Shown in pieces: positions 36,836 through 43,815 of a DNA stretch of 44,257 nucleotides (its first letter is position 1; the number at the start of each line of letters is the position of its first letter). The stretch is from the NCBI GenBank assembly GCA_025201805.1, contig MU619351.1:61349-105605 (forward strand), read 5' to 3'. The DNA is from Parasitella parasitica (taxonomy: Eukaryota; Mucoromycota; Mucoromycetes; Mucorales; Mucoraceae). The notes below the pieces were generated by a model, which saw nothing but the letters and a program-made list of their open reading frames with translations, had not been told where the DNA came from and made no database searches. A program made the translations under genes and the position numbers.

Positions 36836-36864
36836 TATACACCTTTTGCCAAAACGATGTCGCA
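36836..36864 (+). repeat. left terminal inverted repeat
   Basis: 29/29 match to the reverse complement of 39907-39935; the base outside it (36835) no longer matches. Confidence 0.95.
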
Positions 36865-37060
36865 TTTTTCTGGGAAAAAGTGTCGTGTATAAAATATCAA
36901 TCTTTTTTTCAATCCATACAGTCAGTAAAATACAGTATTTCAGGTTTTTTTTTGGCGAAAACATTTTTTTTCTGGACGATTTCCTATTTTTTTTAGGCAC
37001 TTTGGTTTTTATTTTGGACAAAAATTTGGATAACTCAAAATGTTCTTGGTACCTCTTTTG

Positions 37061-37570
37061 GGGTGTAGGCAATTTTGTAGGGCATTTTTGCATGACTTGT
37101 TACCTTTTACCCTTGATGCCGATCAAAATTTAGTAGGACATTTTTATTAGTAGGACATTTTTTTTTATTAGCAAGACTTTTTTTTCTATGTAAATTTATT
37201 TGCAGATGTTGATAAAGTATTAATTAATGTATTGGTTTGAAGTGTTATAGACCAGTCTTGCGGGTTCGGCGCATGATATATCGAACATGCTTGAGATCTA
37301 GGGACGTTGTCTTTTTAGTGGCTTTGCCTTCGAAATAGTCTTCTGCGATGATTCTGCTAATATCTCTGGTATAACCACAAGCGTCTTGAAAAGAAACAGG
37401 AAATCTGTTTTGAAAATATTGTCTGAATGGCATAGCTTTTTATAGGATCAAGTCAAAAGAAAAAGGCACTGATGTGGAAGGGAAGAATCAACGTCAGGCA
37501 CAATTTTATTTAATGGCTTGGTTCCAAAAAAATGTCCTGAAAGAAATGTCCTACAGAATTACCTACACCC
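37061..37570. mobile_element. nested ~510 bp inverted-repeat element (MITE-like)
   Basis: Left end GGGTGTAGGCAATTTTGTAG (37061 on) and the reverse complement of the right end GGGTGTAGGTAATTCTGTAG (ending 37570) match over about 27 bp with a few differences. Subterminal TAGTAGGACATTT motifs near 37130-37160 and inverted near 37532-37550 strengthen the pair. I could not see a convincing target duplication. It contains a 62-codon minus-strand ORF. Confidence 0.6.
37245..37433 (-). CDS. small ORF inside the nested element (62 aa)
   Basis: Complete ATG-to-TAA frame, MPFRQYFQNRFPVSFQDACG at the start and a basic end (YIMRRTRKTGL). I do not recognise it. It occupies most of the centre of the inverted-repeat element and could be an element-encoded peptide, an exon of a captured gene, or chance. 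Confidence 0.3.
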   Translation of the reverse strand: MPFRQYFQNRFPVSFQDACGYTRDISRIIAEDYFEGKATKKTTSLDLKHVRYIMRRTRKTGL

Positions 37571-37766
37571 TTCCTAAAAGGCCCTCTCAGAGAGGAGTGT
37601 TTTACTAGCTTGTGGCGTCATTGTTCGTTCCTGGAAGCACATATTAGCCATTGATCATGCACGGCTTTTAAATGATTGTTTCTTACCCTACTTTGGAGCC
37701 GGATGATCTTTATGTGATTGCATTAAATGTAAATTACACAATGAAGTATTACTCTGCGTAATAAAA

Positions 37767-38010
37767 TAAAATAAACAAGAGCTTGTCAGTTGTCTTTGAT
37801 AGCACTGCCTCAATCAGCCCATGCCAACAACCATGAACGCTGTCTCAATCAACCCACGTTCCAAGCAAAAGTTCAGAAGGAAAAAAACATAGTAAAATAA
37901 ACAAGAGCTTGTTGGTTGTCTATGATAGCACTGCCTCAATCAGCCCATGCCAACAACCATGAACGCTGTCTCAATCAACCCACGTTCCAAGCAAAAGTCT
38001 AGAAGGAATA
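37767..38010 (+). repeat. 126 bp tandem duplication (two copies)
   Basis: Copy 1 starts at 37767 and copy 2 at 37893, nearly identical (TAAAATAAACAAGAGCTTG at each start; copy 2 is slightly truncated). Each copy contains the related sub-units CTCAATCAGCCCATGCC and CTCAATCAACCCACGTTCC. It lies about 200 bp upstream of the element's gene, in its presumed promoter. Confidence 0.93.
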
Positions 38011-38211
38011 AAGAGGTAACTGTTGACAGTGCAAAACCATTCCTTCATAAAAAAAAAAGAAAAAACTTGATTGGATAGAAAAATGACGTCTCGAAAATGA
38101 TTGCGTGTCCGCGTCACGTCGACAAAAAAATTGTGGTTGGTGAAGTGCCTTGGAACAGAGTTTTTGGCAACGCTGCTATTTTTTTTTTATTTAGACTCTT
38201 CCGCAGCAAAA

Positions 38212-39782
38212 ATGCTCGACAACTTTACTTTGAATTTAGAGGAGGACAAGAAAAGAATTTGTGAGATTGTTGTTGATTACTTGGAGAAGCATACTATTTC
38301 TGATTGGAAATACGAAGCTGCTTTGAAAACTCTTGTTGACAAACAACTTGTAGTTGAGCCCACGAATAACAACATGGAAAAATTAGGCGAAATATATTTA
38401 AAAGAAGCTCTAAACAAATACCAGGATCGAAACACCAATTGTAGTCTGAAGAGAAAGAAAAAATTGAATCATTGCAGCAGTCCATTTATAAAATCTGTAC
38501 CTCTACGCCAATTAAGAAGTTGTTGAACGTGGCTAGACATACAAGCCAGTTTTTGGATGAAGCTGTTACAAATAGAGCCCAAAAAGACCAACAAGACCAA
38601 CAAGACCAACAAGCCAGCCAAGCCGCACCCATTAACAACTTTGAAAATATGACTCCTGCTGAAAGAATGGTGTTTTTATGCGACAAATTTGGTGTAGATG
38701 GATATTTGGACTTGATGGAGGACAAGATTGCAGGCCGGTTCAAACAATACCTTAAAGACACCGCTAATGAATTACAATTGAGCTTACAACCTATGACAAC
38801 AAAAAAAGAAAGAGAAATGTTGATGAAGATAGCTGAATGCAAAAGTCGAATGGATATTGACAATTTGTTGGCGATTTTTTATGCTCAGCAAAGTATGGAT
38901 CCTATGTGCCGATACATTAGATTAGCCTTTGCCACAGCAGCAGAACTCTGGTCTTCACGTCTTTTATTGAAAATAGATCACAACGAATCTTGGTTCCGTA
39001 CTCATGTTTACTCGGCTGTTTTCGACAATGCATTTATGTACGATGATAAGTTCACTTCAAAAAGAGCAGACTGCTACTCCAATATCACCAAAGAATTTGA
39101 AGATGTTGACAATCAACGTGTAGATTTTATTTTAAGAAATATCAATGACGATAATGACTATCTCTCGGCAGAAGAAAAACCTAGCTTAAAAGGTGTGAAA
39201 GGTGATATGATAAAAGGCAAAGCGTTACAGAAAGCTATGTTAAGGAAATGGACTGGCCGTCTTGGAAGTGTAGAAATTATGAAACGACTTGAAGCTATCA
39301 CATGTCAATGGCAAGGATTGAAACTCACAGTATATGGTACACGATTCATTTCAAAAGATCACTTAATCACATACAGAAAAGGCAGCTTTGCAATGCCCAA
39401 AGAGGAAACCCACGCAGCATCATTTGCTCATGTATTGGCGGCCGTCTTATCTTTGAGGCGATTGGTGCACTCAAACTATACCAAGCTTAATATAATTTTG
39501 GAAGCCAAATATGCTCATGAACTTGAAACAATGTATTTTTCCTCGGACGATGAAACGAACTTTCGGTCAGACAGTACTGCAGGCTTAGAACACCAGGAAA
39601 AAATACAGACTATTGATGCACAGACTAGCAGTTGCCAAATTATTGATGCTGAATTGGAAACACACATAATACAAGCTTTATGCGACATTGAACCTGAAGC
39701 AGATATAGTAACTTTCGAAGACTGGGAGGAGTTTATTATGGAGAGAACATCAAAAAAGAGAAAGGCAACATCATCCAATTAA
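38212..39782 (+). CDS. element-borne protein of unknown family, possible PD-(D/E)XK nuclease
   Basis: Exons 38212-38349 and 38445-39782, a 95 bp intron with a CTAAAC branch-like site and TTGTAG acceptor, 491 residues. Without this intron the two halves are out of frame; with it the junction is phase 0 (DKQL|SEEKEKIESLQQ). I do not recognise a named family. Order: a helical N-terminus, a Gln/Asp tandem run (DQQDQQDQQ), a helical middle, then a region with Asp273 (QRVDFILRN), Glu-Glu-Lys at 289-291 (YLSAEEKPS) and a following Lys-rich helix (KGDMIKGKALQKAMLRKW). This spacing fits a D...ExK nuclease core, though no fold test was possible. Then comes a beta-rich stretch (WQGLKLTVYGTRFI) and a helix (AHVLAAVLSLRRLV), and a basic NLS-like end (RTSKKRKATSS). 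Its position between inverted repeats suggests it moves the element or is its cargo. Confidence 0.7.
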
Positions 39783-39906
39783 ATAAAGTGTTGAAAAAAA
39801 AGCAAACTTTTATTTTATTAATGCGACATCTTTTTTCTCACTCTTTTCTTAATTTATACGACATTATTTTTTTACAAACTGCGTGCGACAGCTTAAATTT
39901 TTTGAG

Positions 39907-39935
39907 TGCGACATCGTTTTGGCAAAAGGTGTATA
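39907..39935 (-). repeat. right terminal inverted repeat
   Basis: Perfect inverted partner of 36836-36864, ending GGCAAAAGGTGTATA. Confidence 0.95.
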
Positions 39936-42120: not shown

Positions 42121-42655
42121 GTTAACGAGATACGAAAACTTAAAGATACTTTATTTAGGATCAAAATTGCATTTGCTATTTATACTTTTTACAACTACAC
42201 AAATTTATGGTGACCTATTTAGATTACTAATTGACAAGACTAATTTCCAGTAACGATCTACTTGGCAAGGTACAATGTAAGGCCATACAACAAGGGCTAC
42301 CTGTCGTCTTTAATATGACACAGTACCTCAACCTTTATCCTGGTGCTCAGATCTGTATTAATACAGGAATAACCTTCTTGATTTTTGAAACAGAGACTTT
42401 ATTCTCCAGTTGACACAAGCATATCACATCACATCATTGGGCAATCTTCAATCTTTGATTGGAGTACATTGCCATGATTTCCTATCTAAAATTATGGCAG
42501 ATCATCTATTATACAGTAAAAAAAAACTTAGTTACAGTCGTACATTATGACGTTAGAATATAATGTTGGTTTATATAAATACATTCAAAAGATAAAAGTG
42601 TTAATATTTGGCACATTTATTTTACTGACTTGTTTTGACAAATAACAGTTCGACA
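42121..42655 (+). repeat. dispersed repeat family, direct copy 1
   Basis: Begins TTAACGAGATACGAAAACTT and runs through TTTACAACTACACAAATTTA, GACTTTATTCTCC and TTATGGCAGATCA blocks that recur in order in 43330-43815. Confidence 0.75.
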
Positions 42656-42786
42656 AGCATGAGCCAATTTTTTTCTTTTTACGTTAAACTTTGTTCACCT
42701 GTTTCTCAAAAAACTACTATGACACTTTGGCTTGAGTGATTATTAATTTTTTTTTTTTGAAATCTGATTCTCTACTAGATGCATTA

Positions 42787-42955
42787 GTATCAACTAGTAT
42801 TTTAAATAAGCCACCAAAAATTTATGTAGTTGTAAAAAGTATAAATAGCAGATGCAAAGTTGAATCTTTAATAAAGTAATCTCAAGTTTTCGTATCTCGT
42901 TAATTCAACGTTTTATTTAATACTTTTTCTTATTTCGATCTTTCAGATCTCAACA
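42787..42955 (-). repeat. dispersed repeat family, inverted partial copy
   Basis: Reverse complement of about 43287-43455, with long exact stretches (AAGTTTTCGTATCTCGTTAA, TTCAACGTTTTAT). With 43287-43455 it could form a hairpin with a loop of about 330 bp. Confidence 0.8.
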
Positions 42956-43286
42956 ATGCCTCTCGAGTAAACAACGATTAAAACGTTACAAATCAAATCG
43001 GAGTTCAAAATGACAATTTAAACACCGACCGTATGGTAACTTTTTATTTTTCCAGCAATACCAAAAAAACATGCAGTAAAAACAACAACTTTGGTCGACA
43101 CTTATGTATCAATCACTCGTGATTTTTGTCAACCTTGCTGTTATATCAATAACATCCCATAGACCTTGTAGCAAGATCAGGGGCTAAAAGCCAATGTGCG
43201 TGGTAAATCAGGGATTTACACCGCATGCTCCATATATAAATCTTGGTTGCAGTTGTGTATGATGACGTTAGCACGTAATATTAGTG

Positions 43287-43815
43287 TTGAGATCTGCAAG
43301 ATCGAAATAAGAAAAGTATAATATAAAACGTTGAATTAACGAGATACGAAAACTTGAGATTACTTTATTAAAGATTCAACTTTGCATCTGCTATTTATAC
43401 TTTTTACAACAACATAAATTTTTGGTGACTTATTTAAAATACTAGTCGATAGTAATCGATAAGAATAATTTGCAAGCAACATCATATCCTTAACAGGGTA
43501 CGATATATTATTATACTACAAGGTTATTGATCCTTGATCTGACAGTACCTTATTGTTTGTCAATCATACAGATCTGTGTTACAGATAACCTTCCTGATTT
43601 GAAACAAAGACTTTATTCTCCTGCTTCGACCAGTATAACAACACATCATTGGACAATCTCCAATCTTTAATTGAAGTACACTATCATGATCGCCTAACCT
43701 ACATTATGGCAGATCAATTAGTTTATATTATTACATCCAGAGGATGTATTTCAAATAAAAGTGTAACTCTTTGGCAGATTCATTTTACTGACTTATTTCT
43801 GACATAACACTTGCA
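43287..43815 (+). repeat. dispersed repeat family, direct copy 2
   Basis: Its first 170 bp pair with the inverted copy at 42787-42955; the part from 43330 aligns with 42121-42655 in direct orientation, about 1.2 kb apart, with substitutions and small indels. Confidence 0.75.

What the first reader, a model, noticed from the sequence alone, without database searches (positions are those of the whole stretch)
36836..39935. Intact 3.1 kb inverted-repeat element whose only large gene is not a recognised transposase
Perfect 29 bp terminal inverted repeats, palindromic TATA at both outer edges (possible target duplication) and subterminal TGCGACA motifs near both ends mark a DNA transposon that appears recently active. 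The only substantial gene is an intact two-exon 491-residue protein with no DDE signature I can see. It could be a transposon family with a new type of mobilising enzyme, or a non-autonomous element carrying cargo.
Basis: partly seen in the sequence, partly recalled or inferred. Interest (0 to 1): 0.85.

Follow-up and report, generated by a model that had tools for sequence, protein, structure and literature searches.

The report
Fungal jumping DNA carrying passenger gene
A 3.1 kb piece of jumping DNA in a mould has the ends of a well-known transposon type but, instead of the usual jumping enzyme, carries an unstudied gene that looks like a DNA-cutting enzyme and occurs in many related moulds.

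Summary
The element is real: a 29-bp perfect inverted repeat (simulated maximum 18) whose end occurs at 24 genome places, against 0 for the reversed control pattern. The host is Parasitella parasitica. The true boundary is TA|CACC...GGTG|TA, a TA-flanked Tc1/mariner-type element. Sister elements with these ends encode DDE_3 transposases; one (C8, 1,700 bp, 439-aa open frame) matches published Tc1-MP1 in size, repeat length and DD34E spacing. The simplest reading is a non-autonomous Tc1-MP1-like element moved in trans and carrying a passenger gene, not a new mobilising enzyme. The gene is not shown to be intact or two-exon: homologs keep the residues that the proposed intron would remove, and the frame shifts near 38,445. 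The protein belongs to a family whose named members are all Mucoromycota, without a Pfam match. D227 and E243 are invariant in 34 aligned rows and K245 is kept in 33, a D...ExK nuclease pattern; fold searches gave no match. Homologs lie within 2.5 kb of Tc1-type sequence at 3 of 10 other places, one between two inverted transposase copies. The most novel reading, a nuclease gene repeatedly carried between moulds by Tc1 elements, is open but unproven.

The parts
36840..39931 (.). non-autonomous Tc1/mariner-type element (sequence between the two TA dinucleotides)
36838..36839 (.). TA, left copy of the presumed target duplication
   Evidence: TA precedes CACC at 9 of 10 other places
39932..39933 (.). 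TA, right copy of the presumed target duplication
   Evidence: pattern
36840..36864 (+). left terminal inverted repeat CACCTTTTGCCAAAACGATGTCGCA
39907..39931 (-). right terminal inverted repeat
36858..36887 (+). two left subterminal TGTCGYR motifs (36858, 36881; 23 bp apart), probable transposase binding sites (inferred)
   Evidence: 23-bp steps also in the C8 element
39822..39913 (-). four right subterminal TGCGACA/TACGACA motifs (39822, 39857, 39884, 39907)
38212..38447 (+). N-terminal part of the passenger gene, first reading frame
   Evidence: aligns with P0002 from residue 1 to about 79
38448..39782 (+). main part of the passenger gene, second reading frame; D...ExK motif residues D227, E243, K245 (numbering of the 445-aa frame from 38445)
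37061..37570 (.). nested 27-bp inverted repeat pair (89%); no further match in the genome at up to 3 mismatches; perhaps a separate nested insertion
37760..38011 (.). 126-bp tandem duplication (93%) in the non-coding left part

Best explanation
A non-autonomous IS630/Tc1/mariner-type transposon, close to the published Tc1-MP1 group, that has lost or replaced its transposase and carries a passenger gene. Shown: the ends, the TA boundary, sister elements with the same ends and a DDE_3 transposase, and no transposase match here. Inferred: a transposase made by a sister element binds the terminal repeat and the TGTCGCA subterminal repeats, cuts the 3.1 kb unit out and reinserts it at TA. The passenger belongs to a conserved Mucoromycota protein family with a D...ExK motif typical of PD-(D/E)XK nucleases (inference from conservation). 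It is most likely a gene picked up by, or trapped between, Tc1-type ends, not the mobilising enzyme.
For: 24 end sites against 0 control. TA before CACC at 9 of 10 other places. Of 5 elements with both ends clearly found (window, C8, C43, C58, C207), 4 have TA on both sides and C43 has CA on one. The C8 sister, 358037-359736, is 1,700 bp with a 146-bp inverted repeat holding one mismatch and a 439-aa open frame, DDE_3 E 3.3e-28, and a match to Sleeping Beauty transposase at E 1e-4. Tc1-MP1 in print: 1,688 bp, 141-bp repeat, 434 aa, DD34E (PMC9977792 section 5). A C43 frame and a frame beside the C220 end are also DDE_3. No transposase in the window element: one search lists no match on C115, and the 445-aa frame has no DDE family. 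The C207 element with the same ends carries a different frame without a DDE match. Protein family: 42 then 64 homologs; every organism name printed in those lists is a Mucoromycota fungus. R207, D227, D235 and E243 in 34 of 34 rows, K245 in 33; the pattern is kept in six distant paralogs as CEDK.
Against: The window's perfect repeat is 29 bp against 146 bp in the C8 element, and its TTTTGCC end differs from C8's TTTTCTC. Elements with the window's own TTTTGCC end have incomplete or unreadable transposases: C220 matches residues 83-402 of 443, C43 is split over two frames, C31 runs into a 3.2 kb gap. No second copy of the whole 3.1 kb unit was found, and no empty site could be examined, so transposition of this unit is not shown. 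Fold searches gave no nuclease match.
Confidence: 0.85

Rival explanations
1. The 445+ residue protein is itself a new mobilising nuclease and the element is autonomous.
For: It is the only large gene in the element. It has a nuclease-like D...ExK motif. Relatives are dispersed and many are short or partial, like a mobile gene.
Against: None of the three readable sister elements with both ends carries it: C8 and C43 hold DDE_3 frames and C207 a different frame; a DDE_3 frame also lies beside the C220 end. Of the 10 other homologous places in this genome only 3 lie within 2.5 kb of such ends or transposases. The frame is broken here.
Confidence: 0.06
2. Chance flanking: two separate insertions (solo ends or miniature elements) happen to bracket a resident gene, and nothing moves as a unit.
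For: The whole unit was found once only. The left part holds another inverted repeat. In C30 a homolog is bracketed by two transposon copies. Ends without a detected partner are common.
Against: Both ends carry the 25-bp repeat exactly, in the correct inward orientation, with TA on both outer sides and subterminal motifs inside. Sister elements of 1.6-2.2 kb have the same arrangement.
Confidence: 0.1

Closest known systems
Tc1-MP1 (DD34E Tc1 transposon of Rhizopodaceae/Mucoraceae; PMC9977792, passages and section 5 seen)
   Same: Host group, TA target, DDE_3/DD34E transposase in the sister C8 element, element length 1,700 vs 1,688 bp, repeat 146 vs 141 bp, protein 439 vs 434 aa
   Different: The window element is 3.1 kb, has a 29-bp perfect repeat and encodes no transposase but an unrelated conserved gene; the Tc1-MP1 sequence itself was not available for alignment
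Gene-carrying non-autonomous DNA transposons (Pack-type elements; recalled, not taken from a call)
   Same: Transposon ends bracketing a non-transposase gene, presumed to be moved in trans
   Different: Here the ends are Tc1/mariner type and the gene is a fungal family with its own scattered distribution
PD-(D/E)XK nuclease superfamily (motif recalled)
   Same: Helix, then strand with invariant D, then E-x-K 16 residues on, then helix with K and Q
   Different: No convincing profile or fold match in Pfam, PDB or PADLOC
Bacterial composite transposons (two insertion sequences around cargo; as described in PMC9977792 passages)
   Same: Five other loci in this genome have two near-identical DDE_3 elements in inverted order around other sequence
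   Different: The window element has no transposase copies at its ends; only 1 of the 5 bracketed centres (C30) holds a recognised homolog of the window gene

Membership tests
IS630/Tc1/mariner superfamily (by ends) | TA target duplication at both ends | tested here: met
   TA|CACC ... GGTG|TA in the window; TA at 9 of 10 other places; occupied/empty comparison not possible
IS630/Tc1/mariner superfamily (by ends) | terminal inverted repeats shared with transposase-bearing elements | tested here: met
   C8 and C43 elements and the C220 end share it and carry or adjoin DDE_3 frames
IS630/Tc1/mariner superfamily (by gene) | element's own DDE/D transposase | tested here: not met
   no DDE family in the 445-aa frame; no transposase match listed on C115; hence non-autonomous
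Tc1-MP1 group | about 1.7 kb element, about 141-bp repeats, about 434-aa DD34E transposase | tested here: met
   met by the C8 sister (34 residues between D and E counted by eye in the frame), not by the window element itself
Tc1-MP1 group | transposase sequence identity to Tc1-MP1 | not tested
   its sequence is in a supplement that was not available
PD-(D/E)XK nucleases | conserved D ... (D/E)-x-K | tested here: met
   D227 34/34, E243 34/34, K245 33/34 rows (rows are the window and 33 of the 42 homologs); CEDK in six distant paralogs
PD-(D/E)XK nucleases | alpha-beta-beta-beta-alpha-beta core fold | tested here: inconclusive
   model pLDDT 78.6 with a compatible order of elements, but no fold match; domain-only model weak, pLDDT 65.5
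PD-(D/E)XK nucleases | nuclease activity | not testable with these tools
   needs biochemistry
Composite transposon | two transposase-bearing elements at the ends | tested here: not met
   the window element has only 25-29 bp ends and no transposase match

The most novel reading that the evidence does not exclude
A Mucoromycota-wide nuclease-like gene family is a recurrent passenger of Tc1-type transposons. It is carried inside short-ended elements (window) or between inverted transposase copies (C30) and has moved between genera, with the mycoparasite Parasitella, a known laboratory donor of nuclei to another mould, as one carrier. The nuclease may help its carrier to spread.
Probability: 0.15. 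Interest if true: 0.7.

Novelty: new variant of a known kind. Interest (0 to 1): 0.42.

Why it matters
Tc1/mariner elements normally carry only a transposase. A conserved, nuclease-like passenger gene bracketed by such ends would show how these very common fungal elements move other genes. The gene's identity pattern (closer to Rhizopus delemar than to some Mucor species) makes transfer between moulds testable, in a fungus used as a laboratory donor of nuclei (PMC4807231 abstract).

Tried and rejected
Rejected: a new mobilising enzyme (sister elements carry DDE_3 transposases). Rejected: the two-exon model (intron 38350-38444 would remove residues that homologs keep).

Not supported on testing: I expected the cargo of the other four inverted-transposase loci (C25, C46, C66, C128) to be relatives of the window gene from motifs read by eye; hhalign probabilities were at most 3.6%, so only C30 is a recognised relative. 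The tree (31 rows) does not resolve the window copy's place (no starred set holds it).

The proximity test gave 3 of 10 within 2.5 kb (binomial 8e-4), 2 of 10 within 1.5 kb (0.007) and 3 of 10 within 5 kb (0.004). It treats transposons as evenly spread, which they are not, and one search is itself a lower bound. I gave it 11 places (10, the window's own included, plus C145; the window's own was then left out), 94 transposase intervals typed from the 109 matches (neighbouring matches merged or dropped; counted) and 22 of the 24 ends (the two weakest left out).

Two first attempts at a chance control for the inverted repeat gave simulated maxima of 152 and 64, probably from low-complexity and N runs; the corrected one, with N removed, is.

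Literature: eight answered searches, seen as listings; three papers were opened in part (PMC9977792, PMC7928374, PMC4807231). None of the listed titles or abstract beginnings describes a cargo-bearing Tc1 element of Mucorales. This is not proof of absence. A review of cut-and-paste fungal transposons (PMC5751038) is not held.

Full report
What is there. The window lies on a 105,605-base contig (C115:61349-105605) of a 30.7 Mb fungal genome (contig length). A window dynamin gene is 100% identical to a Parasitella parasitica record on a contig of the same length, so the host is Parasitella, a mould that parasitises other moulds (recalled). At 36836-39935 two arms of 29 bp are exactly inverted. 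100 simulated sequences of the same composition gave at most 18 bp for pairs with ends 200-5000 bp apart. It is the longest such pair in window bases 1-42000. A longer pair of 88 bp at 42829-43410 belongs to a separate repeat region near the contig end.

The ends are a repeat family. A 22-bp version of the end occurs at 24 places (14 forward, 10 reverse; the window's two included), and the reversed control pattern at none. The 7 with 2-3 mismatches include some that may be unrelated. At 10 other places fetched, CACC is preceded by TA in 9 while the bases outside vary; the search patterns contained TA, so this is not independent. Of five elements with both ends clearly found (window; C8:358037-359736; C43:109744-111373; C58:28087-30309; C207:12231-14306), four have TA on both sides and C43 has CA on one. 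A sixth pair at C2:151752 is about 225 bp long with a degenerate second end and was left out. The DNA search found the whole 3.1 kb unit once; its other matches are ends of at most about 97 bp and gene fragments at C145.

The mobilising enzyme. The C8 sister element is 1,700 bp, with a 146-bp inverted repeat containing one mismatch and TGTCGCA repeats in steps of 23 bp with one missing step, and an uninterrupted 439-residue frame. That frame matches Pfam DDE_3 at E 3.3e-28 and Sleeping Beauty transposase at 1e-4. The published Tc1-MP1 of Rhizopodaceae and Mucoraceae has 1,688 bp, 141-bp repeats and a 434-residue DD34E transposase (PMC9977792, section 5); in the C8 frame I count 34 residues between the second D and the E. 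C220 has a 327-residue DDE_3 frame next to its end, and the C43 element an HTH frame and a DDE_3 frame that are separate. The genome holds at least 109 matches to this transposase, none listed on the window's contig. [quoted passage not shown] The window element has the same ends, TA boundary and subterminal motifs, but no transposase. It is therefore best read as non-autonomous and moved in trans. That step is inferred; no empty site could be compared.

The gene. The names printed are uncharacterised, hypothetical or unnamed proteins. Homolog P0002 matches 38212-38514 in one frame and 38448-39773 in another with no residue gap, so the gene as assembled shifts frame near 38,445. The proposed intron would delete conserved residues. 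Conservation over the window and 33 of the 42 homologs: R207, D227, D235 and E243 in 34 of 34 rows; K245 in 33; E181, Q262, E283 and Q288 in 31 each. Six paralog exons from this genome keep the pattern as (L/V)D(F/L)(I/V)...CEDK and match the family profile with hhalign probability 99.4%. D...ExK followed by a helix with K and Q is the usual layout of PD-(D/E)XK nucleases (recalled knowledge). The AlphaFold2 model (pLDDT 78.6) has a compatible order of helices and strands, but neither it nor a weaker domain model (pLDDT 65.5) found a nuclease by fold. I put the nuclease reading at about 0.55.

Passenger or partner. Of 10 other places homologous to the gene, 3 (C8, C30, C207) lie within 2.5 kb of a listed Tc1-type end or transposase; 1.9% of the genome lies that close (binomial 8e-4; clustering of transposons is not corrected for, and the lists are incomplete). 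At C30 the homolog sits between two inverted, 99.3% identical transposon copies. At C8 and C207 it lies outside the element, beside it. Four further loci (C25, C46, C66, C128) show the same double-transposon arrangement around other sequence whose frames are not alignable with this family. The C207 element with the same ends carries a different 217-residue frame, with 13 other matches at about 10 places. So the ends carry unrelated genes, which favours capture over partnership.

Signs of transfer. Over residues 261-445 the window protein is 86.5% identical to R. delemar P0005 (160/185) and 88.7% to M. circinelloides P0057 (165/186), but 66% to M. velutinosus (121/183) and 64% to M. bainieri (119/186). 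Over the conserved core 151-295 the contrast is weaker: R. delemar 93% (135/145), M. velutinosus 87% (126/145), M. bainieri 87% (122/140). For the dynamin baseline M. circinelloides is 94% and R. microsporus 86%; R. delemar and M. velutinosus are not in the list shown. The nearest named tree rows are both R. delemar. This is discordant with the species relations but does not separate horizontal transfer from old paralogs; the tree does not resolve the window's position. Parasitella is a laboratory donor of nuclei and mitochondria to Absidia glauca (PMC4807231 abstract), so transfer is plausible, not shown.

Verdict. A real non-autonomous Tc1-MP1-like transposon with an unusual conserved passenger gene: a new variant of a known kind, of moderate interest, and not a new class of mobilising enzyme.

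Noticed in passing
L065 (C30), L066 (C128), L067 (C25), L068 (C46), L069 (C66): Five loci with two 99.3-99.9% identical inverted copies of DDE_3 transposon sequence (arms about 1.5-2.4 kb) around 1.8-5.6 kb of other sequence; in C25 and C46 the arms run past the inner transposon repeat into the centre, which suggests units or inverted duplications, not two separate insertions.
   Followed up: partly
L036:1932-4007 (C207:12231-14306): A 2.1 kb element with the same ends as the window element carrying a 217-residue frame of unknown family; 13 other matches at about 10 places in the genome.
   Followed up: partly
window 37061-37570: A separate 27-bp inverted repeat pair (89%) with ATGTCCT motifs nested in the left part of the element; no other match in the genome at up to 3 mismatches.
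   Followed up: partly
window 42122-43798: Large inverted and direct repeats (145-nt arms 96% complementary at 42783-42927/43312-43456, with an 88-bp perfect stretch; direct repeats spaced about 1.2 kb), probably another repeat array near the contig end.
   Followed up: no
L039 (C106:86513 onward): A Tc1-MP1-like end followed by frames with a weak C2H2 zinc-finger match, cut by an assembly gap; possibly another cargo-carrying element.
   Followed up: no
C145:56856-57057, C17:78890-78988, C5:394495-394911: Degraded fragments related to the window gene elsewhere in the genome.
   Followed up: partly
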